Shown here: positions 1,751-54,693 of the stretch, one piece after another
How positions within the stretch are numbered: position 1 is the first letter of the stretch
Layout: each line of letters starts with the position of its first letter
DNA from: Fragilariopsis cylindrus CCMP1102
Lineage: Eukaryota > Bacillariophyta > Bacillariophyceae > Bacillariales > Bacillariaceae
Length of the DNA: 64,000 bases
Assembly: GCA_900095095.1 (NCBI GenBank)
Contig: FMBT01000301.1
Location: 310,001 to 374,000, forward strand
Direction of reading: 5' to 3'
Program-made: the position numbers and the translations under genes
Notes under the pieces: generated by a model
The model's database searches: none
Seen by the model: the letters and a program-made list of their open reading frames with translations, nothing else
Told to the model about the DNA's origin: nothing

Positions 1751-4700
1751 TTAGTTTGATGATGGACCACCACTGCCACTTCCACCACCATATCCTCCTC
1801 CAGATGACGGATTATTCGAACGGTAATTATACTGATTGGGTGACGACGGTGACGGACCAGTTGCTGCCGTAGACGACGATACATTAGGTGGTGCATGGCT
1901 CCTTAAAGGTTGTTGCTGTAATAATGCCGCTAGTAAAAATTCTTGTTGTTGTTGATTTGTTCCTGCTGCTCCTGTTGTTGTTGAATTGTTATTAGTATTC
2001 ATGCTACTCAAATTGCTGTTCATCTCGTTCATACTAGCCATACTGTTATTTGCATTACTATTACTACTATTACTAATGCTGCTGCTTCTATTCATAGCAG
2101 CAGCAAGTGGATTCATTAAAAGTTGTTGTCGTTGCTGTTGTGTTAGATTTTGTTGTTGTTGGTGCTGCTGTTGCTGTTGGTTTTGTTGCTGATGCTGTTG
2201 GGGATTTTGCTGTTGTTGTTGTGCAGCAAGCAAAGACTTTGCACCCAAAAGAAGCGCTTGTGTGATATCGTTACTACCGCTGCCGTTGCCATTGCCATCA
2301 CTACTGCTGTCAGCAGTTCCTCCAACCCTATTCCCTGTTGAAGATGTATTCGCATTCGTTTGAGAATTCGAATTCCTATTAGCAGCTGCCGCTGATACAA
2401 ATGGATGGTTGGCGTTGTTAGTATTACTTGCACCACCACCACCACTCATGGAAGAATTGTTACCAGTAATACTAGTAGATCCTGACGATGGTACTGAAGA
2501 TTGATGCTGATCCTGCTGCTGCTGCTGCTGCTGTTGATGATGTTGTTGTTGCTGGTGGTACAACGACGACTGACCTTGGCCTGCCTGCTGATTTTGTTGT
2601 TGTTGTTGCTGCTGTTGATGTTGCTGTTGCTGTTGTTGACGAGCTAGAAGCTGCGCCATTTGATGTTGAGATTGAGATCTCTGTTGCTGTTGCTGTTCAA
2701 GCAGTGCAGATGATTCTCCTTGTTGAGAAGCTGATGATCGAGGATGAGATTGACCCGATTGTTGATTATGTTGTTGTTGTTGTTGCAATAATTGTTGTAA
2801 CTGTTGCGCTTGTTGTTGTCCTTGTTGAGATTGTGGTGGTGCTTGACTATGCTGTTGTTGTTGTAACAATTGTTGTAGCTGTTGTGCTTGTGCTATTTGT
2901 TGTTGTGATTGGGGTTGCAATTGTTGTTGATGCTGTTGCTGAACAAGATGTTGGATCTGTTGCTGTTGCAATAAAAGATGAATTTGTTGTTGCAATTGTT
3001 GTTGTTGTTGTTGAGGTTGAAGAGGAGTCGTTCCCATCCCTGATGCTCCTCCTGTTCCACTTCCTCCACGTTGTCCTTGTAATAATTGCAATAGTTGTTG
3101 ATGTTGTAGGGCTTGTTGAGAAGAATTTTGTTGTTGCCATTGTGTTGCTGCTTGAAGCTGTTGTAACTGCAATGTCATCATCATCGCTTGTGCTTGTGCT
3201 TGTTGTTGTGGTTGGCTATAATTTGGATTATTCCTATTCGTATTATTCGCTTGTTGTTGTAGACCTGCCAATGAACCATCAGTAGGATTCTGATGTGTAT
3301 ACTGCATTGCTGCAGCAACAGCATTTGATATTGATGATGATGATGTATCCATAGCTGCTGCTGCTGATGATGGTGACTGCATCATAAGTCCTGATAGATT
3401 TGTAAGATCAGTAAGAAGAGGATTCATTGTTGATAAAGCTGATCCTGCCGTATCATGATGTTGAGAAGAAGCTTGTACGCCAGTAGTAGTACCGGTCGTC
3501 GCGTTATTCGCAACCTCGTCTGTTGGAGGTGATGGTGGTCCTTTACGTTTGGACTTCCCTCCACCACGACCACCTCTTTCACCATTTTTTCGTGCAGAAG
3601 ATCGTTGTCTATTACTATCACCACCACCACCACCACCTGAAAGACCACTTAATTCTATACCATGTGTGGTTCTCATTGTACGATTTTTTGTTTCAGATCG
3701 TGGCCTACCCCGTAATGCATGACTAATCTTTTCAATAGCAACTTCTGTAGTAACTTCCACCCAGTATTCCCGTGAACCCTCATCTACTGCTATCGACGAG
3801 GATGATACTGCTGCTGATACTGCTGATGGTACTACAGCAGAAGAGGACGACGCAGTAGTACTAGCAGTAGTAGTACTATGATCTTGTTTATCAGCTCTTT
3901 TTAGAAATCTTCCACCTCCCCGTGCTTTTAATGCGGCAGCAGCACCATTTTGATCTTCCCCTGATGATGATAATGATGATATCTTCTTGGAGGATGACGA
4001 TGTTGATGATGATGCAGAACCATTCGTTCCAGCAGCTCCATTCGTAGTACTACTAGTTCCTCCATTCGTAGTACTATTGGTTCCATTCTTACTAGATCCA
4101 TTCGTATTTCCTGCAGTTCCAGTTGTCCCAACCCCACTACCAGCACTAGCACCACCATCAGCACCAGAAGGTGCAGGTGCAGATCCAACAGCAGCAGTAG
4201 CAGCAGCAACAGCTTGATCTTGTTGTGCTTGCGCATGTGCCTCCTGCTGCTGTTGCTGTTTTTGTTGTTGTTTTTGTTGTTGCGATTGTTGTTGTTGTGG
4301 TGGTGGTGGTGGTACGTCCCTTCCTTCGTCTCCACCATTACCTTCTGCAACTGAAATGACTTGTACTGTTCCTGTTCCTCGATGTACTTCATCTAAGACA
4401 GTTTTAGCAATACCAGCTTTATCTTCCTTTCGTGAATTCCCATATACTAGTCTAATACGATTGACTATTCGATGAAATCGTAAATTACCTGGATGATTTT
4501 GCAATGGTCTACCCCGTCCAAATAAGACATCATTGGGACGGGGACGATAAATTTTGACACCAGTAGAATCCGACGAGGAGGATTCAGATATATTTGTGGT
4601 GGTGGTTACAGCATTATCATTATTATTACTGTTATTATCATTATTAACATTGTTGTTGTTGTTATTCGGCAGTCGTCCCATTACTATCCCAATTGCCTCA

Positions 4701-5104
4701 TCGTTCATATTATTAGCTCGTGCTTGTGCTTGTGCTTGTGCCTGTGCTTGTGCTTCGTTGTTGTTAGCGGCAGCAGGATTACTATTACTATCAGCTAAAG
4801 CATCAGCGTAAGCAGCAGAAGCGGCAGCGTTGTGATCCATATCTCCAGCGGCGGCAGCAATGTTCATATTGTTTGCGTCTAGCTGCTCCTGATAAAGATC
4901 ATTTCCAGTTGTTTGACGTCTAGCGGTAGCTGCAGGATTATTATTATCAGTATCAGCTAAAGCAACGTTAGCAGCAGCAGCAACAGCGTTGTGATGATCC
5001 ATATTTCCGGGCGCGGCGGCAGCAGCAATGATGTTCATATTGTTTGCATCTAACTGCTCCTGATATAAATCACGTCTGACTTTGTCGCTGTTACTATTCT
5101 TCAT
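1751..5104 (-). CDS. DUF6824-domain protein, extremely poly-Q rich (1117 aa)
   Basis: Single reading frame starting at an ATG at 5104. Residues 12-68 and 69-125 are a near-tandem 57-residue duplication (each starts D-L-Y-Q-E-Q-L-D-A-N-N-M-N). A DUF6824 domain starts at about 183 with PNDVLFGRG and continues through NHPGN and GIAKTVLDEVH to about 241. It resumes only at about 393 (GGGRFLKR) and again at about 447 (WVEVTTEVAIEKISHAL), so two low-complexity inserts of roughly 150 and 47 residues split the domain. From about 600 on the protein is mostly poly-Q, poly-S, poly-N and G. DUF6824 is a diatom-expanded family often suspected to be regulatory; its biochemical role is unknown. No signal peptide or membrane segment is seen, and a nuclear or cytosolic regulator is plausible. 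The inserts keep frame and lack clear splice sites, so they are probably translated. Plus-strand frames rich in Leu and Val across this region are only shadows of the CAG/CAA repeats. Confidence 0.85.
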   Translation of the reverse strand: MKNSNSDKVRRDLYQEQLDANNMNIIAAAAAPGNMDHHNAVAAAANVALADTDNNNPAATARRQTTGNDLYQEQLDANNMNIAAAAGDMDHNAAASAAYADALADSNSNPAAANNNEAQAQAQAQAQARANNMNDEAIGIVMGRLPNNNNNNVNNDNNSNNNDNAVTTTTNISESSSSDSTGVKIYRPRPNDVLFGRGRPLQNHPGNLRFHRIVNRIRLVYGNSRKEDKAGIAKTVLDEVHRGTGTVQVISVAEGNGGDEGRDVPPPPPQQQQSQQQKQQQKQQQQQEAHAQAQQDQAVAAATAAVGSAPAPSGADGGASAGSGVGTTGTAGNTNGSSKNGTNSTTNGGTSSTTNGAAGTNGSASSSTSSSSKKISSLSSSGEDQNGAAAALKARGGGRFLKRADKQDHSTTTASTTASSSSAVVPSAVSAAVSSSSIAVDEGSREYWVEVTTEVAIEKISHALRGRPRSETKNRTMRTTHGIELSGLSGGGGGGDSNRQRSSARKNGERGGRGGGKSKRKGPPSPPTDEVANNATTGTTTGVQASSQHHDTAGSALSTMNPLLTDLTNLSGLMMQSPSSAAAAMDTSSSSISNAVAAAMQYTHQNPTDGSLAGLQQQANNTNRNNPNYSQPQQQAQAQAMMMTLQLQQLQAATQWQQQNSSQQALQHQQLLQLLQGQRGGSGTGGASGMGTTPLQPQQQQQQLQQQIHLLLQQQQIQHLVQQQHQQQLQPQSQQQIAQAQQLQQLLQQQQHSQAPPQSQQGQQQAQQLQQLLQQQQQHNQQSGQSHPRSSASQQGESSALLEQQQQQRSQSQHQMAQLLARQQQQQQHQQQQQQQQNQQAGQGQSSLYHQQQQHHQQQQQQQQDQHQSSVPSSGSTSITGNNSSMSGGGGASNTNNANHPFVSAAAANRNSNSQTNANTSSTGNRVGGTADSSSDGNGNGSGSNDITQALLLGAKSLLAAQQQQQNPQQHQQQNQQQQQHQQQQNLTQQQRQQLLMNPLAAAMNRSSSISNSSNSNANNSMASMNEMNSNLSSMNTNNNSTTTGAAGTNQQQQEFLLAALLQQQPLRSHAPPNVSSSTAATGPSPSSPNQYNYRSNNPSSGGGYGGGSGSGGPSSN

Positions 5105-29446: not shown

Positions 29447-32400
29447 TTATTGATCGGGATTTCCTTCCATTTGATGAAGGAAATCGTATGTAGATTTGAA
29501 TCTTGGTGGTGGCTTTCTAGAAGAAGATCCAGCTGATGCTACTACCGAATGTGATGATAGTTGTGTTCGTTGCGGTGATATAGGGGACGTAATCGATGAA
29601 GAATCTTCCATTGAACGGGATGCCATAATTGGCGTCGGTGACGGTGACTGTGTTAGGGAAGAAGATCGAGGATAGAACATTTCGTCGTCGTCGTCGTCGT
29701 CGTCTTCGTCATTAGATCTTCCCCATGATGATAGAGATTGTCGAAAATTTTGACATGCTGCTTGAGGTCTATTAGTAATACCAGCAGCCGAAGCAGCAGT
29801 AGCGTTTCTCGTCAATAGACTGTTCGTAGCGACAAGCTCACAAGCAGCATCGATAGTGCTACTTCTTTCACTAATTACGTCTGTTATGGCTGAGGCTACG
29901 GGCGTTCGTACTGATATCTCATCATCTTCTTCTTCCTCTTCTTCATTAGGAATTTCATCAATCGTATCTTCAGAAGAACTAAGATGGATACCACTCACCC
30001 CCTTGCTTATAGCAGATAACGATCTCGTCGTAAAGATACTACTTCTGGCAGGAGAATCACGGAACGATACACTTCCTCGAGAAGAAAACGACGAATCCAT
30101 TGGTGTAGTCATGAACGACGTCCTTCCCGTTCTTGAACTGATCGTGTCGGCACTCAGAGCCAACGACTCGGTAAGATGAGAATATCGACTGTTCTTGGAT
30201 TTGTCTTGACTCCAGGCCAATGATAGTGCAGGGACATCCTTATCGTCAACATATTTCGTTGCCTGTATGAAGTTTTTCTTGTACTGCCCAGATGCTTGAA
30301 AATAAAAAACTGCAACTAATATTAGAAAGGACCCCAGTGTGATCAGTAGCGAGCTGGGTAACGAAGCTTGAATTCTATTACATTGCGCCTCTGTCGGTTC
30401 GGCGATTCCTATGGAGGTCAAAATATCAAAAATACCTGTCAGTATACAGCAATAGAGATGAATAGAGTATGAAACAATCGATCCAAGCTGCCATACTCCG
30501 ATACAGACAGAAATGAAATATATCTCCATATGTTTCCATTTGTATAGACGAAAGTATGACGGTAATCCACACCCTTCGTGTCCAAAGGTAGGCTTAGTCT
30601 CGTCGTCGTCACCATCGTTGGCGAGAGTATCCTGTCGTTCTTTTCGTTCTCGAATCTTTTGCTGTATAAATTGATATGCCTTGATGACAAACGTAAGAGA
30701 TACTGAAACACCGGCAGCGAATAAGAGCAAACCGAGACCGATGTAATCTGCTTTAGTAACACAAACAAATCGTGCCTTAAACAGTATCCCACTAATTACT
30801 AAAAACACTCCATACTCGGAAACAGCCTCTTCGTATGTATTCTCTGATTCGATAGCTATTCCACCAATGGATGAAATATCAAAAGCAATGGCAGGAGCAA
30901 ATACGCACCCAATAATAAATACAGTCGCAATAGTAATCGCAGCAAGGATGCCGCCCAAATGACCCCACCTGTAAACCTTCCATGAAGACATCCTGAGAAT
31001 CGATAGATTTGTTGGTATCTCCGAAAATGAGTCTACTACAGAACCAGAACGTGGTGAATCATTTAAGAAACCATTCTCAAAGGTATTCATAATGTCACCA
31101 TCCGTGATGCGAATCGAAGGTGGATCGATATCAAAGGAACAACTTCCTCCTAATAGTTGATCGTCAACCACTTGTGATATACTAATATCACCCTCTACAC
31201 TCTTACGAATTTCGGTAGCCTTGGTAACAGCAGTATCGTGATATTCTAAGAGAAATTGGGAGCTAACTCGAGACATACGTTGAGCAACGATAATACAATA
31301 ACATCCAAATTTTGGTACAATAATTGCCTTGAGTGCATAGTATACCCCGTCACTATCGATAGATTCATCTGGTCCTCCTATAAATACCAAAAGTACTGCA
31401 AATCCAAGGATCATAGTGAAGATATCAATAATACTAAGCCTTGCTAGGGCGTCAATCCAAAGAAGGGTCGTACCTCTACGCTTGACTCCGAGGTATTTCG
31501 GAGGAACCATCCAAATTACCAAAGACAGCAAAAGCTTTACATATGGCCATATTCCCGCAAAGATCCAGATTAAAATTACCATCTCGGCGCCACCATTGTC
31601 AAACGTAGTTTTGGTAGATTCAATAAATCGCTGTGCAAAGAAAACGAATGGTACATGAAGAAGTGAGCGACTGAGACAAATATTTGAAAAAAAATAACAA
31701 ACACAACTGAGGTCAGGAACTTACAAACTCAAGAAAGTTCTTTATGGTGAAACTCTGCCCAGCAAGTGTTACGTCAAGATTAATAACAGACAGTAACCCC
31801 AAATGACCTCCGAGGTACAATCCCATGTTCACAATAAGTAAGAATGGAACTCCCCATCGTATCGACTTGGGGATACATGGTGAGGCGAAAAGTGAGCTAG
31901 TATTCTCATCGAGCCATTCTTCCATCGACTGCTGTTTGTCTCGTTGGCAGTCGAGGAAAAAGCGCCCCTCGTTCGTAAGTGAATGCGTCCACTTTTTGTT
32001 TCGACGGGCGACTATTATTTTACCAAGTATTCCAATCAAAATAAGACAACCAGCGATAACAGAATTTGCAACGTTGAAATATTTTGGATTCTTCTTTTGC
32101 TCGGACGAAACAAGGCTAAATGCAGCGTCTGTCAACAAGATTGAATTTGTAAAGTCCGATGAATCATATTCACGATCATATTCACTAAGATGAGGACATC
32201 GTTTCTTTGATTCATTTACCATATCATTTAGAAACGTTCGCGCGAATCCAGAGTCCATAAGACCACTTGTCTGTTCTTTTATTGCAGCCGTTAAATCTTG
32301 TGGTTCGTAGAGAGATAGTAGCAGCTTATCAAAATCGGGACTGGTGCATGACGTACAGGCAATGTCCATATCGAAATCTCCTGTAGAATAACTTTGATCC

Positions 32401-35400
32401 AGCAGTTGAACTCCATCAAATACATCGCCCTCATCGGATATTGGCAAAATCGTTGCAGCCCAGCAATTCAAGTTCGTGAAATCTTCGATTGGGAAATTTG
32501 ATATAGAATTTTCCAGAACTTTAATCAGAACTTCGGCTTGGACCGTTACGTCCTCAATCAAGAACGAAACATCAATCTCGTTTCGTATCTTCATTTCGTC
32601 TCCGTCATCTAAAGAAAGTGTGAGTGTTGCTTGGAATTGTAGAGGTTTCGAATCGACACCGAACGACAGTTTGTTATCTAAGATATGAGCTTCACCGTCG
32701 ACTGGTCGGAATAGATGAAGTGGATCACCGACACTATTGAGATTCTGAATGAGAATATCTGAAACTTGAATCCCAAAATCGGCACGAAGACCGGCAATCT
32801 GAATTACAGATTGGGTGTCAAGAGCCGTCCCAGTAACTTTGATCGTTCCGGAACTATTTGATTGCTTTATGGTGAGAGTTTCGAGCAAATCATTCATCAC
32901 AGGACGCTTCGATGCTCCCGTCTGCATCACCTCCTTATCAAGTATGCCGTACAACACACGGAATAGATTTCCGTACGCAGAGGTATCAACACCGCCACCG
33001 TCGACACCACCATCACCACTGCCACCAAGAAGTTTTTTGGAATCATCATCTTCCGATTGCAATAATAATTCATGAAAATCAATAACACCATCGTTTGCAA
33101 ATTCTGGAGGGGATTTGCATCTTGCAGTCATTGATTGTAGAATACTTGGTACCAACGTATTAAAAACTTCTCGAATGGTTGAGCCGGTCATCAATGGGAT
33201 GGCTTGCAAGATTTCATTTTGATATTCATCGTGAAGTGAATTAAGGATTTCACTTAATGCTGATTGTCGTTCTATAGAAAAAAACGATGATGAGCCTTTC
33301 TCTCCAACAACCGGACGTTCAATTTGTTCGATATTCAAATCCAATTTGGAAATTTCAAATTCTTGTAGACCTATCATCATACAATTTATAACTTTTGAAA
33401 TATCAAAGAGTGATCCAATTTTTAGTTGACCTATTGATGTTGTATTAATAGCAATCTTTGTATCAACGTCTAATGATATACCGTTCGCCTTGTATACCAA
33501 TTCGATAACTTGTGGATGGTCCATTATAATATTCGAAGCACCACCACCACCACCACCACTACCGTCCATTGTATTAGTAATATTACAATCCAAAGCAATG
33601 ACCAAATCATTCAATTTTAAACTTGTACTCATTGTATACGGATCTACCACAACAAATGGATCAATTGATGTGATAGTATCTAAACCAGTAATTCGTACTT
33701 TAACAACAGACATAGTGATACCAAGCATCGTGTATTTCATATCTTCAATATCTATTTCTAAAATACCATCATCGTCTAAGATATATTCACGTAGAAGAAT
33801 ATTTACTCTTGACGTTGTTGTCATGTTGTTGTTGTTGTTGTTGTTGCTATTAGTAGTATTAATGGATGACGACAAAAATTTTCTTGTCACTAAAACATCG
33901 TCGTTGGACGTCGGCGTCAACTCCTCATCATCTGTTGTAATAATAACGGTAGTAGGAAGGACTTCGATTTGCCTCGAAAGATATTCACGAAATTCATCAA
34001 ATGCAATATCTATCCAAGATAATCCAAATTGTTTATTAAGATTGGTAAAATCAATTATACCTTCTTGTTTTTCTTCAGGAAATATACTACTACTAGTCGT
34101 ATCACTTGGTAGGGATTGTTGTTGCTGTCTATGTCTATTATTATTATCAGGTGATGATAATAAAAGATGATTCCTTGCTAAAACAATAATTGATGATTGT
34201 AAACCAATAATACCTAATGCTAGAATAGTTTCCAATGAAATACTTGACATCATATCACCAGAAGAAAATAGATTATTTGGCATCAATAATGCTAGTAGTG
34301 ATGGAACATCTTCTTCTTCTGAAGCAACATCATTGTATACATCAGAATGTGGACAATACTTTGGCGATTCTTTTATTAATTCATCAAATGATGAATTATT
34401 CCACAATGATAGAATTAAATCTTCAATTAGAATAATAATTGATGTACGGAATGATGATACGAATAATGATCCAGTATTACTATTATTATTATTATTCTTA
34501 TCGTCGTCGTTTTTTACAAGATGATTCAATACTTCTGATATAGAATCACATCCAGGACTGTTACTTGATGATAACATACTATCAGTATTGATACAAGTCG
34601 AATCTAAAAAGAATGTTGATAATGAAAACGCAAGAGAAGTAATTACCATTTTCTTGTTTTTCATGTTGTCATTGCTGTCACCGTTGTTGTCACTATTGTC
34701 ATTGTTGTCATCATCCCTATCATCAAGTGCAGACAACCAACAATAGGGATTCATTAGATCCTTTAATGGGAATTCTAATACAGATTTTTCTTTTGTATTC
34801 ATTAATATATCCATAGATATACCAGTGGATGGTATTGATAGACTAAAATCAATTTCATTCTTCATTCGAAATGGTCGTGGATACTTGGTAGTGTCATTGT
34901 CACTAATATCATCAATATTCAGAAACACTCTCACCGTTATATTCAGGTATCGATCACGTCCACCTTCAGCTGCAGTTGTTGTTGTTGTTGTTACATTATT
35001 TTTAGCAACAACACTTGCACTTGTACTACTTTTACTACTGCTATCGAAAGCGATACGATTACTCAATATATTTCCTCCTTGGGATGATGTTGGTTGTAAT
35101 AATTCTATTGGACCTGTAATAGTATTTAAATTTGAAATTGTTATTTTTGATACACGTAAATCAATTGTGTCGTATAATAGTGATGACAATGATGATTGGT
35201 CTTGGTCTTGGTCCATATATATATCCTGTTGTTGTTGTTGTTGTTGTTGTTGTTTCATATTATCCTGTTGATATTCCCAGACATCATTAAATAGTATTGT
35301 ATTTTCAATCCCAGATTGTTGTTTGGTGATGGATGGTATATATTGGGAATTCAATTCATTATCAACATTACTTAGTAGCTCATTATTTATATATGGAACA

Positions 35401-37597
35401 ATAATTCTGGAGAGTAAATCACCATAGACTGCAGTTCCTGATCCACCTAATTGCATTGATGCCTCTGGAGATAAAAATAAATCACGATAATCAATAAAAA
35501 TAGTATCATTTTTGTTTTCAGTTGTTGTTGTTGTCCACGGATCAACACATGTTCGACCATTACCACTAACACTAACACCACTAACACCACTACTAACATT
35601 ATCATTAGTATCATTAGTATCAAATTTCAATAAGACATATTCTTGTAATAATTTTTGACTTAATTGTGGACGTAATTCATTTTGGATATAGATGGGTGCT
35701 ATATCTAATAAGATCTGTTCATACAAAAGAAATGATAACTCTAAACTATCACCAATCAGTTCATCCAAACCAGTCGATACAAGACCCTGAATAGAGGGTG
35801 TACTAATATCTGTAGCATCCACATTGAGTGAAATAAGATCTAATTCTATTATAGTGGATAAGAAACAATTAATGGCATCCGAACTCGATTTGAGTAAGGA
35901 ACCAATTCGTATCTCATTTTCTAATGAGGTACGATTGATTGCTGTTAGTAACGATGCGCCTGTATATTTGCAATATCGGGAAGATAAGTAAATTTCCGTG
36001 AGAGGTGGAGAGAAAGAACTTTTAGTCGGCGTATAATGGTGGAAGTCGCGTAAAGTCAAATACATAATTAATATGGCATAGCGCTTGCTATGAAGCGTGC
36101 GCGGGAGGGTTTCTTACCTGCTGTTAATTCATTCACACTTAGTACCAGTTTTACTTGTTCTTGAATAATAATGGGTGGTTGTTGAGACGTGGCTGTAGCA
36201 CTTGTTATTGTTGTTGTTGTTGCTGTACTACTACTAGTACTCAAAATTGAATCTTGATGTGAGGATGGTCGTACAGTAACAGTCATATCAATCTCTAATG
36301 CTAAATAGTCCCATGCTAAATTTGTTTCTAATGTATAATTACCAACAATATTCGCATTATTGAAGGGACTACTAAATTTGGTGATGGTATCCAATCCTAA
36401 TAATTTCACACGATCTAATACTAGGACAGTATTGGTAATTAAATCTTCTTCATGAAACAATATACCATTATTATTTGGAAAATTATTATCTGTTAGTATT
36501 AATGATCTATCGTCTGTGTCTAATACAAAATCACGCAACCAACTATTGATTTGAAGTTCACTACCTTCTTTTGAATTATTATTATTTATCACTATTGGAA
36601 TTATTTCATTTGATTTATCAACACCCTTTTGAATAATTCCATTCATCCATCGTCCTACTGTGGTTGTATCTTGTTCACGTAAATTCAATAATGATAATAA
36701 TCCGATATTGGTATTGGCATTATTTGAATTTGTATTGGTATTAGCCGCAGTAGCAGTAGCAGTAGCAGTAGCAGCAGTATCAAGTAGTAACTGACTAACA
36801 AACTCTGTTTCATATTGGACGATTATTGCAGCTGCATTTTTCGGTTCATCATTATCTGATGATGGTTTATTATTCAAATATGGATCTAGAATATCATTTG
36901 TAATATATTGTAAAAATTCTGTTCCATCCTGTTCGAACATAGTTTGAATAGTGGTACATATATTATTGGAGGCTAACTCTTCTATCGATGTACGTAATAC
37001 ACCTTCTATGGCATCTAATATCCATCCAATAACACCACCATTGGAAAAATCAATATCCAGTATTTGTAGTGTTGGAGTACAGTCCTGCATTACAATATTG
37101 GATGGTCGACTTGAGCTATCTGAACTAATACTTGCTTTAGTTGTTATATAATTCTGTCCACTATATATATATACATCACCATAATTTGTCATACCTAATA
37201 CACCACGATATTTATATTCGGCATTACATATAAAGTCTAATTTGTTTATATTTAATTCTATTTGTACACCTTGATTTGAATCTTGATTATTAGGACTTTG
37301 ACGACTTGATGTTAATGATATATCATTAATTGACATTTGCATACATATAATATTATATAAATCAATGGAATATCCATTGGATTTCATGGTTGGTAAATCA
37401 GGTAATTTGACATTCACATTTTTTAATATTTCATTTACTTCTACAAAAGAATCATTATTATTTGATGTTTTTCTTTGAGCTTGAGCTTGAGCTTGAGCAT
37501 CAGCGAAAAGAGACGACAGTTGAAGTAAAAGTAGAAGTAATAATAATACTTGAAAAAGACGACGAGAAATCAAATGAAAACCTGCTGGCATCGTCAT
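29447..37597 (-). CDS. Giant TULIP (BPI/LBP-like) plus PqiA/LetA-like membrane protein, three exons, about 2632 aa
   Basis: Predicted join on the minus strand: 37597..36118, 35959..31725, 31630..29447; junction phases 1 and 0 agree. Residues 1-35 are a signal peptide. About 40-290 resembles the N-lobe of BPI/LBP, with Cys173 and Cys214 spaced like the BPI disulfide. Two long repeats follow (about 395-1090 and 1245-1815) with paired landmarks such as G-L-D-T-I-T, I-G-S-L then I-N-C, N-L-N, R/K-N-E-I-D, N-x-x-C-W and C-P-H. A helix at about 1789-1813 is followed by basic residues. Then comes a PqiA-like module: a helix at about 1860-1885, a short loop, FAGIWPYVKLLLSLVIW (compare F-S-x-x-x-P-L-L-K-L-L), KRRG, and LDALARLS-like ALARLSIIDIFTMILG (compare G-R-W-S-M-L-D-V-F). 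A second multi-helix set spans about 2128-2350; a Ser-rich tail ends the protein. A lipid-transfer role at a membrane is inferred. Not an annotated family to my knowledge; the TULIP call is by pattern only. Confidence 0.8.
31631..31724 (-). other. Intron 2 of the giant gene
   Basis: 94 bases, donor GTAAGT after TTTCTTGAGTTT and acceptor TTTGCACAG before CGATTTATTGAA. Phase 0. It joins the last loop before the PqiA-like helix to that helix. Confidence 0.88.
35960..36117 (-). other. Intron 1 of the giant gene
   Basis: 158 bases, donor CAG/GTAAGA and acceptor TATACAG/GC. Phase 1 on both sides, recreating a Gly codon. Without removing it each neighbouring frame ends within about 60 bases. Confidence 0.85.
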
Positions 37598-52615: not shown

Positions 52616-54693
52616 ATGATGACGCCGACGCCGATGCCGACGCCGACGCCGATGCCATACGGCGAAGATTTACTGACAAAAGAACTAAGTCAACTAAGTT
52701 TTAAGGATCGAAATGATTATCAAGGTAAGTACAGTTAATTTAAAATTGTCGTGTCGTATCGTGTCATATGTTGTGTCGTGTTGTGTCGTTCAGGTGTCGT
52801 GTCCTCGTGATGAAGATAATTCCTCTTCGATTTCGATTCATTCGAGCTCGTTCTTATTCTTACAGTACACTTTCGGTGTGGCTGGCTACTGCTATTCTGG
52901 GTGTTGGGGCTACTGCTCTAACATTTATCGTTTATCGTTAATCGTTTATCTTATTTTCTTTTTTAATTCTCCCACACAACACAAAACAAAACAAAGATGA
53001 AATACATTCTGTCAAATGTTTAGCAACGGATGAAACACCTGATTTAATTCAAAAATCAATCGATGAATTACAAATTGAAATTGATACAAAAATTCCAGAA
53101 TATCAAAAGGTTGCCTACTTACAAAGTCAACGTACCGTAGAAGGACGTTCATTTGTGAATTCCAAAAAATTTCGACTGCGTTTTTTAAGATTTGAATTAT
53201 TTGATATACACAAAACTGCCATCCGGATGTTATCATGGTTAGATAAAGCATTAGAGTTATTTGGTTCGGTGGCATTAGAAAGACCAATCAATATATCCAC
53301 AGATTTTTCACCACATGAATTAAAAATATTCCGGAAAGGTTATCTCCAATTATTATCGGTTCGAGCCACTGGTACCGGTCGACGGATTGTTTGTGCCCTA
53401 CCCTACGATGAAGAATACTATACATCCAAACAAGTTATATTTAAAATTTTCATGTATATATGTTGGGTGATAGGGAATGACATTGATACACAACGGAAAG
53501 GATTTATCTTTATAATCATGTTTGATTCCTCATTTTATCAAATTCCACATATATTGGGTGCAGGTGTATTAGTTCCATCCACTCAATGGTTACCTGCTGT
53601 CCGAATCAGTGCGATGCATATCTGCACGCCGGATACACCCTTTTTTCGACTCAGAAGAAGCTTTCTAACAATGGCAATTGGATCACATAATCGTGCAAGA
53701 TTAAAGTTACATATTGGTACATCCATTGAATTACGTTATATCATACAAGTATATGGTATACCAATAGAATTTATACCAATTACATATACTGGAAAGATAA
53801 AATTATTATATGTAAGACAATGGTTAAGAATACGTAATATGATCGAAAATCAGGATGAACTAAGGCACAAGATGATGGCTCCAGAATTAAATTCTAATAC
53901 CAGTACCATTATTAATACCAATACAATTGATACCAATACTATTAGTAGTAATGATGATAGTATTGTTATTGTAGAAGCACCATATTTGAATGATATTCTA
54001 TTTAAGATGGGTGTTTCATTGACAAATCATCCTGGTAATAACACATTACGGAATTTAATTGATTCTAAAGTGAAACAATTACATGAAAGTTATAGTGATA
54101 ATCCATCACAGCAACAATTTCCAAAGAAGGACATAAAAAAGACATTATTATTCGAAATAATGGACGAAATTGTACATAAGTATGGTGGTCGTTTTCTTTA
54201 CTGGCATCAAGATAAAACTATGTCCGACGTGTGGTGGGTGTTAATGCAACCCAATGGCAATAATGGCAATGACAAGAAATTAATTTTGCAAAAAATTGAA
54301 CATTTATTTCGTAAATCATATCTAGTGCAACAACAACAACATCAAAAAAGAATAAAAACAAAACATACTATGAAACAGCAACAGCAACAGCAGTTACAAT
54401 CAATACAAAAAACTAATACAACAGCTGCTACAGATATCAACAGTAATTGCAACATTAGTAATGATCGTAGGATTATTAATGACCCACCTGTCGCTGCTAC
54501 TACTTCTACTACTACTGTAAATCAAAATGGTGGAACATTTTTATTCCATTCTCTTGATGGTAAAAATAGCACCAACTGCGGCAACGGAAACAACAATGAT
54601 AATAATACAATAATGGCAATCACTTCGTCGTCGCCATCAAGATCATCGTCATCATCAGAATGCTTTGGTATGAATTTTTTTTCAAGTGGTTAA
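52616..54693 (+). CDS. CRAL-TRIO-like plus DUF6824 protein (two exons, 601 aa)
   Basis: Predicted join 52616..52724 and 52997..54693 with matching phase 1. Exon 1 encodes a Met/Thr/Pro leader and LTKELSQLSFKDRNDYQ, and exon 2 continues with DEIHSVK, a helix conserved at the start of many diatom proteins. Residues about 90-310 (KFRLRFLRFELFDIHKTAIR, LQLLSVRATGTGRRIVCALP, KGFIFIIMFD) resemble the CRAL-TRIO-like lipid-binding domain seen in diatom families. A DUF6824 domain follows at about 365-470: NDILFKMG, TNHPGNNTLRN, KKTLLFEIMDEI, GGRFLYWH and WWVLM. The usual G-R-G after L-F is K-M-G here, so this copy is divergent. The tail is Gln/Asn/Ser-rich. Taking only the long second frame would begin at a non-ATG codon at 53155 and lose the N-terminus. 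Confidence 0.82.
52725..52996 (+). other. Intron of the CRAL-TRIO/DUF6824 gene
   Basis: 272 bases, donor CAAG/GTAAGT and acceptor ACAAAG, phase 1. It contains a GTGTC/GTCGT-rich stretch. Confidence 0.82.

What the first reader, a model, noticed from the sequence alone, without database searches (positions are those of the whole stretch)
29447..37597. A single-polypeptide TULIP plus PqiA/LetA fusion: candidate eukaryotic lipid-transfer machine
Seen: three long minus-strand frames join through two clean, phase-matched GT-AG introns into about 2632 residues. They start with a signal peptide and a BPI/LBP-like lobe (Cys173 and Cys214, spacing like the BPI disulfide) and end with a membrane module carrying WPYVKLLL and ARLSIIDIF, which fit the PqiA/LetA signature. 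Known: bacterial LetA/PqiA pass lipids to periplasmic MCE tunnels; TULIP domains carry lipids. Inference: the positive-inside pattern (A-R-R-N-K-K after the 1789-1813 helix, K-R-R-G after the PqiA helix) puts the lipid-binding part and the LetA-type loop on the same exoplasmic side, so the TULIP part may replace the MCE tunnel.
Basis: partly seen in the sequence, partly recalled or inferred. Interest (0 to 1): 0.87.

Follow-up and report, generated by a model that had tools for sequence, protein, structure and literature searches.

The report
Diatom TULIP–LetA lipid-transfer fusion protein
A diatom gene encodes one very long protein that joins a chain of TULIP-like (lipid-carrier type) domains to a bacterial-type (LetA/PqiA) membrane module; such fusions were briefly noted in 2017, but this version has a doubled TULIP-like block and its two membrane halves carry their signature in the opposite order to the bacterial proteins examined.

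Summary
The gene (minus strand, exons 37597-36118, 35959-31725, 31630-29447) reads 2632 aa without a stop, and paralogues support both splice junctions. Exon 1 carries a BPI/LBP/CETP domain above Pfam's cut-off, with Cys173/Cys214 on BPI residues 135/175. Exon 3 is below the PqiA cut-off, but its close paralogue scores 55.2 bits, and the family profile's only PDB match (E 0.04) is E. coli LetA. The genome is a diatom's (27 silicon-transporter matches). Four loci share lobes and LetA module; a fifth pair has LetA after a long unmatched N-terminus; one gene is LetA-like without lobes. No MCE (PF02470) match was found. The architecture is not new: Wong & Levine 2017 (PMC5507252) describe protist and amoebal CETP/BPI proteins with a C-terminal PqiA domain. 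New here: (1) the B-C block is doubled in two genes, giving a predicted five-lobe chain; (2) the K/S/D signature found in domain 2 of 12 of 12 bacterial proteins examined sits in domain 1 of 6 of 6 diatom genes. Domain swap or separate duplication is unresolved. TULIP folds of B and C, and all function, are inferred; both AlphaFold models failed.

The parts
36118..37597 (-). exon 1 (ATG at 37597; residues 1-493 and one base of codon 494)
   Evidence: open frame, GT donor at 36117
37490..37597 (-). predicted signal peptide, residues 1-36 (by eye; cleavage site not computed)
   Evidence: hydropathy peak 2.36 at residues 14-32
36563..37438 (-). lobe A, BPI/LBP/CETP N-terminal type (about residues 54-345)
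   Evidence: PF01273 34.3 bits at 36932-37357; profile finds BPI and LBP in PDB; LBP/BPIFA1 by phmmer
35960..36117 (-). intron 1, 158 nt
   Evidence: CAG|GTAAGA..ACAG; junction aligned to paralogues
35619..36559 (-). lobe B (about residues 347-607, spans intron 1)
   Evidence: conserved in paralogues; self-alignment with lobe B'
31725..35959 (-). exon 2
   Evidence: 1411 full codons open
34347..35507 (-). lobe C (about residues 645-1031)
   Evidence: paralogue alignment; hhalign B against C E 5.3e-4, probability 31%
34179..34235 (-). inter-module hydrophobic segment, residues 1069-1087; likely relic of a duplicated membrane anchor
   Evidence: KD 1.97 here, 1.69 in C60, against 2.47-2.99 for the retained anchors
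33120..33812 (-). lobe B' (about residues 1210-1440), second copy
   Evidence: self-BLAST of residues 349-905 against 1211-1664, E 3.1e-12
32190..33086 (-). lobe C' (about residues 1452-1750), second copy
   Evidence: as above; conserved CW, CxxC and CPH-type cysteines in five rows
32007..32063 (-). TM0, anchor between the lobes and the LetA module (residues 1793-1811), followed by ARRNKK
   Evidence: KD 2.47
31631..31724 (-). intron 2, 94 nt
   Evidence: GTAAGT..CACAG; gap-free alignment over the junction
31238..31874 (-). LetA/PqiA domain 1 (about residues 1856-2036, spans intron 2), carries WPYVK and SIID
   Evidence: paralogues over the PF04403 cut-off; family domain 1 against bacterial domain 2 hhalign 1.1e-12
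29447..31630 (-). exon 3 including stop codon
   Evidence: open frame, 727 aa
30278..30970 (-). LetA/PqiA domain 2 (about residues 2126-2356), degenerate in this copy
   Evidence: sub-threshold PF04403 stretch; family domain 2 against bacterial domain 1 hhalign 6.4e-8
29450..30277 (-). predicted cytosolic low-complexity tail, residues 2357-2632
   Evidence: acidic and Ser-rich by eye

Best explanation
This is a secretory-pathway lipid-transfer protein of a diatom. Shown by sequence: a BPI-family lobe, a further block (B-C) present twice and conserved in paralogues, and a LetA/PqiA-family membrane module with two domains. Predicted: a signal peptide, one anchor helix and eight module helices. 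Inferred: the five lobes form an exoplasmic (luminal or extracellular) chain of TULIP tubes that shields lipid acyl chains. The LetA module takes lipid from, or puts it into, the membrane in which it sits, through the domain carrying the K/S/D signature (domain 1 here). Lipid then passes along or with the TULIP chain to an acceptor on the same side, as MCE tunnels are thought to do for bacterial LetA and PqiA. No ATPase was recognised in the polypeptide, so direction would be set by a gradient or a partner. Doubling the B-C block would lengthen the reach. Membrane, lipid and direction are unknown.
For: PF01273 34.3 bits in exon 1; PDB matches of the lobe A profile are two BPI entries (E 0.006) and LBP (0.011), with an unrelated allergen below them (0.082); all six PDB matches of exon 1 up to E 10 are LBP (0.005) or BPIFA1 (0.3-0.89). 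PF04403 55.2 bits with two stretches in paralogue C68; the only PDB match of the family profile up to E 10 is E. coli LetA/YebS 9n8w, E 0.04, two stretches. Collinear paralogues. K+R on predicted cytosolic against exoplasmic flanks: window 28 to 8, C68 20 to 3, C60 27 to 9, C674 18 to 3, helices placed by hand. No PF02470 (MCE) match in the assembly, while 4 of 14 control genomes ring. Bacterial letA/pqiA stand next to letB/pqiB in E. coli and next to pqiB or a MlaD-family gene in 6 of the 10 plasmid loci fetched (of the other four, three stretches have no annotated gene and one shows only the PqiA gene).
Against: Lobes B and C match no TULIP structure or Pfam TULIP family; PF02886, the BPI C-terminal lobe, is not found (nothing rang in the controls either). 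Both AlphaFold models are unusable (pLDDT 42.7 and 29.2). The PDB match to LetA is weak by itself (E 0.04). The window copy is divergent: PqiA below cut-off, proline lost in domain 2. Helix 7 of the module peaks at only 1.58 in hydropathy while two predicted exoplasmic loops peak at 1.86 and 1.88, so the helix count is not secure. The segment at 1069-1087 is hydrophobic enough (1.97) to span a membrane, which would put B'-C' on the other side. No expression or functional data.
Confidence: 0.6

Rival explanations
1. Lipid uptake or sensing at the cell surface: the BPI-type chain captures environmental or bacterial lipids (BPI and LBP bind lipopolysaccharide, PMC5507252) and the LetA module imports them, as a scavenging or recognition receptor; the long predicted cytosolic tail would signal.
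For: Lobe A finds BPI and LBP; a 276-residue Ser-rich, acidic tail.
Against: BPI-family lobes bind many lipids; LPS-binding residues were not tested; location unknown.
Confidence: 0.2
2. Tethering or structural role: the LetA module is degenerate and serves only as a membrane anchor for an exoplasmic lipid-binding chain.
For: The window copy lost the domain 2 proline and has L for W in domain 1; PqiA score below cut-off.
Against: K, S and D of domain 1 are kept in 6 of 6 diatom genes, the window's included, and one gene (C265) has the LetA module without lobes in the frames examined, so the module has a role of its own.
Confidence: 0.15
3. Wrong gene model: two or three neighbouring genes joined by chance.
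For: No transcript evidence; several alternative in-frame splice pairs exist for intron 1.
Against: C60 aligns to window residues 399-1972 in one tblastn alignment (4e-109), C68 joins lobes and first LetA helix in one exon, and both junctions align to paralogues.
Confidence: 0.04

Closest known systems
CETP/BPI proteins with a C-terminal PqiA domain in protists and amoebae (Wong & Levine 2017, PMC5507252; passages and section 6 read)
   Same: BPI-family lobes followed by a C-terminal PqiA membrane domain (9-12 transmembrane domains); same idea that both parts may handle the same lipid.
   Different: The section read gives no duplication of the lobes, no diatom, no gene counts and nothing on the order of the LetA halves. 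Here the B-C block is doubled (two genes) and the signature sits in domain 1.
E. coli LetA (YebS; PDB 9n8w) and PqiA
   Same: Two related domains; P-x-x-K and S-x-x-D in one domain, P and W with D or E in the other.
   Different: No CxxC motif in the membrane part of the four diatom genes tested; signature domain is first, not second; fused to BPI-type lobes instead of standing beside an MCE gene.
BPI / LBP / CETP family
   Same: Lobe A matches PF01273 over the cut-off with Cys173/Cys214 on BPI 135/175.
   Different: Most members are secreted proteins of 350-500 aa (PMC5507252); here about five lobes, membrane-anchored, and PF02886 not detected.
MCE tunnels LetB / PqiB
   Same: Would play the same role: a hydrophobic conduit served by a LetA-type protein (inference).
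   Different: No Pfam MCE match in this protein and none found in the assembly.

Membership tests
BPI/LBP/CETP family (TULIP), lobe A | match to PF01273 above the curated cut-off | tested here: met
   34.3 bits, cut-off 28.8; the only match listed in the genome
BPI/LBP/CETP family (TULIP), lobe A | disulfide cysteine pair of the N-terminal lobe | tested here: met
   Cys173 and Cys214 align with BPI residues 135 and 175; that these form the BPI disulfide is recalled
BPI/LBP/CETP family (TULIP), lobes B, C, B', C' | PF02886 or any TULIP match by sequence | tested here: not met
   no match; not decisive, since these searches are by sequence and PF02886 rang in no control
BPI/LBP/CETP family (TULIP), lobes B, C, B', C' | tubular TULIP fold | tested here: inconclusive
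   AlphaFold model of B'-C' unusable, pLDDT 29.2
PqiA/LetA family | match to PF04403 above the cut-off | tested here: inconclusive
   window protein 14.9 against 23.8 bits; paralogue C68 55.2 bits, two stretches; window exon 3 against C68 E 9.9e-28
PqiA/LetA family | two domains of four helices each (recalled for the bacterial proteins) | tested here: inconclusive
   helices placed by hand from paralogue alignment; in the window protein 7 of 8 peak above 1.6 and helix 7 at 1.58, but two loops peak at 1.86 and 1.88
PqiA/LetA family | K and S..D signature in one domain | tested here: met
   all three residues in 6 of 6 diatom domain 1 and 12 of 12 bacterial domain 2; K in 0 of 12 bacterial domain 1 (5 have R) and 0 of 6 diatom domain 2
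PqiA/LetA family | CxxC zinc-ribbon motifs of bacterial members | tested here: not met
   no CxxC in the membrane part of 4 of 4 genes tested; C265 and C613 not tested
PqiA/LetA family | partner MCE protein | tested here: not met
   PF02470 0 matches, 4 of 14 controls ring; introns, divergence or missing contigs could hide one
PqiA/LetA family | lipid transport activity | not testable with these tools
   no assay

The most novel reading that the evidence does not exclude
Diatoms run an MCE-free LetA system in which one polypeptide holds both the lipid translocator and a five-tube TULIP conduit, and the translocator descends from a LetA whose two domains were joined in the reverse order (or arose by a separate duplication that reached the same division of labour in mirror image).
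Probability: 0.3. Interest if true: 0.75.

Novelty: new variant of a known kind. Interest (0 to 1): 0.55.

Why it matters
LetA/PqiA proteins are thought to serve MCE tunnels. A eukaryotic lineage in which the same kind of module is fused to a quite different lipid conduit, with no MCE gene found, is a natural test of whether LetA can work with any hydrophobic tube and of which residues carry the lipid step. The K, S and D residues, which sit in one domain in bacteria and in the other here, are directly testable candidates for that step.

Tried and rejected
AlphaFold of exon 3 alone (pLDDT 42.7) and of B'-C' with its own internal copy as the only second row (29.2): unusable, so no fold search was run. 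Related loci: viral contigs with the LetA and the B-C profiles and genome contigs twice gave no confirmed relative. Profiles of B-C and of B and C superposed gave no TULIP match. PF02886 gave nothing here or in the controls, so it says nothing. Rfam found nothing in the window at its gathering scores.

A simple collinear import of a bacterial LetA is disfavoured (7.1 log units, p-AU 0.042), but that test is marginal and was framed after seeing the motif. The swap itself is not shown: with the window's rows left out, a separate duplication is the best tree (support 85/95, not starred) and the swap is 0.47 log units worse. One NCBIfam result runs against the swap: in C68 the best stretch to TIGR00155 puts diatom domain 1 on positions 95-165, the first half; C265 goes to 282-362, the second half. 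Against a recent separate duplication: diatom domains 1 and 2 hardly recognise each other (hhalign 0.0045), less than each recognises its crosswise bacterial counterpart. Considered and rejected: that 1069-1087 is a true extra transmembrane helix (its C60 counterpart is weaker, 1.69, and the charge pattern of the rest would be inverted); this is a judgement, not a proof.

Species: five tries at the 18S rRNA family got no usable answer; 'diatom' rests on silicon transporters and on recalled knowledge of that family and of DUF6824.
Full report
WHAT IS THERE. The minus-strand gene at 37597-29447 has three exons and two GT-AG introns and reads 2632 residues without a stop. The details in the finding that I checked (coordinates, cysteines, motifs, basic stretches) are correct. 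The gene lies in a eukaryotic assembly of 67.9 Mb in 818 contigs. That it is a diatom follows from 27 matches (stretches, not genes) to the silicon-transporter family, best E 1.1e-226, together with recalled knowledge of where that family occurs.

THE FAMILY. Exon searches of the same genome found paralogues on C674, C68, C60, C275, C613 and C192. C60 and C275 are identical over 9,665 bases and count as one gene. By BLAST, the window gene, C60, C68 and C674 share both lobes and LetA module. C613 and C192, 93% alike over most of the long frame, share only the LetA part with the others by BLAST; their N-terminal part of about 1200 residues has at most a sub-threshold PF01273 hit (12.4 bits in C192) and enters the lobe alignment only by forced alignment. 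They differ at 86 synonymous and 70 non-synonymous single-base codons, which suggests purifying selection, though no formal test was made. C265 has a two-domain PqiA gene with no lobes in the frames examined. Lobe A is over the Pfam cut-off only in the window gene; C68 shares it with C60 (9.3e-20) and with the window (2.5e-4); it was not recognised in C674.

GENE MODEL. C60 aligns to window residues 399-1972 in one tblastn alignment (E 4e-109). C68 runs from lobe A to the first LetA helix in one exon of 973 codons. At intron 1 the joined sequence (NELTAG/ASLLTAINRTS) aligns without a gap to C68, both C60 copies and the window's own second copy; C674 and C613 have one extra residue just after it. 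At intron 2 (KNFLEF/RFIESTKTTF) there is no gap against C68 and C60.

N-TERMINAL PART. Lobe A matches PF01273 at 34.3 bits (cut-off 28.8). A three-row profile finds BPI (E 0.006) and LBP (0.011) first in the PDB, then an unrelated plant allergen (0.082). Exon 1 alone finds LBP (0.005) and five BPIFA1 sequences (0.3-0.89), nothing else up to E 10. Cys173 and Cys214 fall on BPI residues 135 and 175. After lobe A come lobes B and C, and in the window gene and in C60 a second copy B'-C': self-comparison gives E 3.1e-12 for the window gene and 2.0e-54 for C60. C68 has the block once. B and C resemble each other weakly (hhalign E 5e-4, probability 31%; A against B or C shows nothing of note), so a chain of five similar lobes is likely but not shown. 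No sequence search places B or C in a known fold and the AlphaFold model failed. The first copy ends in a hydrophobic stretch (1069-1087) at the place where the second copy has its membrane anchor; it is weaker than the anchor in both genes (1.97 against 2.47, and 1.69 against 2.99), as expected of a duplicated anchor that has decayed.

MEMBRANE PART. The window's PqiA score is 14.9 bits, below the cut-off, but C68 reaches 55.2 bits in two stretches and C265 42 bits, and window exon 3 matches C674 at 2.6e-36 and C68 at 9.9e-28. A four-row profile has one PDB match up to E 10, E. coli LetA (9n8w, E 0.04, two stretches). Profile comparison of six diatom rows with E. coli LetA and PqiA gives 1.9e-6, while lobes A, B and C against the same target give 0.98, 0.74 and 0.47. 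With helices placed by hand, K+R on cytosolic against exoplasmic flanks is 28 to 8 in the window protein, 20 to 3 in C68, 27 to 9 in C60 and 18 to 3 in C674. The helix count in the window protein is not secure: helix 7 peaks at 1.58, and two presumed loops at 1.86 and 1.88. No CxxC is present in the membrane part of these four genes.

ORDER OF THE LETA DOMAINS. In 12 of 12 bacterial proteins examined (E. coli LetA and PqiA, and 10 from plasmids picked by me from 60 hits listed out of 99 records), domain 2 has K in helix 2 and S and D in helix 3. Domain 1 has no K at that place in 12 of 12 (5 have R), S in 3 and D in 3 of 12, E in 9. In the six diatom genes domain 1 has K, S and D in 6 of 6; domain 2 has K in 0, S in 2 and E in 6 of 6. 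Profile scores cross over: diatom 1 with bacterial 2, 1.1e-12, with bacterial 1, 8.6e-7; diatom 2 with bacterial 1, 6.4e-8, with bacterial 2, 3e-6 (each is for one comparison). A tree makes each of the four groups one side of a branch, bacterial domain 1 with weak support (52/95). With the long-branched window rows left out, the simple collinear arrangement is 7.1 log units worse (p-AU 0.042), the swap 0.47 worse (p-AU 0.47), and a separate duplication is the best tree, support 85/95, not starred. Diatom domains 1 and 2 hardly recognise each other (0.0045), which fits a recent separate duplication poorly. So the diatom module is probably not a straight import of a two-domain bacterial LetA, but swap and separate duplication cannot be told apart here. 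The best NCBIfam stretch of C68 speaks for collinearity and that of C265 against it. In three alphaproteobacterial records the two domains are separate, overlapping genes, so joining them in either order is easy to picture.

MECHANISM. The parts fit an exoplasmic lipid carrier chain served by the membrane module. PF02470 (MCE) has no match in the assembly although 4 of 14 control genomes ring; introns, divergence or missing contigs could hide one. Membrane, lipid and direction are not known. C60's presequence has a Phe just after a possible cleavage site (sequence), which by recalled rules could mean the plastid; the window protein lacks this.

PRIOR WORK. Wong & Levine 2017 (PMC5507252; [quoted passage not shown] That covers the central idea of the finding. 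Ten searches of the held library, of which I saw the listings, showed no other paper on the fusion and none on LetA-domain order in eukaryotes; most subscription papers are not held, so this does not show absence. The paper on the LetA structure was not seen; only its PDB entry appeared.

VERDICT. A real gene with an intact frame, of a known but seemingly little-studied kind, in a variant form: doubled lobe block, transporter signature in the opposite domain, no MCE found.

Noticed in passing
31238-31874 and 30278-30970; paralogues L032, L033, L034, L036, L038: Order of the LetA halves: K/S/D in domain 1 in 6 of 6 diatom genes, in domain 2 in 12 of 12 bacterial proteins examined.
   Followed up: yes
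L038 (G000:C265:644000-653500): A LetA/PqiA two-domain gene without lobes in the frames examined; the best single PF04403 match in the genome search (41.7 bits).
   Followed up: partly
L036 and L037 (C613 and C192): Near-identical pair with a long N-terminal part of about 1200 residues before a LetA domain; that part has no BLAST match to the other paralogues.
   Followed up: partly
L034 and L035 (C60 and C275): Two contigs identical over 9,665 bases around the C60 gene: an assembly duplicate or identical haplotype.
   Followed up: no
L034, N-terminus of the C60 protein: Presequence TNSQA-FGS followed by a Thr-rich stretch with Arg; Phe after a possible cleavage site recalls diatom plastid targeting signals (recalled rule).
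   Followed up: no
window 1751-5104 (-) and 53155-54693 (+): Two DUF6824 (PF20710) matches in one window, one above and one just below the cut-off.
   Followed up: no
L051, L052, L055: In three alphaproteobacterial plasmids the two LetA domains are separate, overlapping genes followed by a MlaD-family gene.
   Followed up: partly
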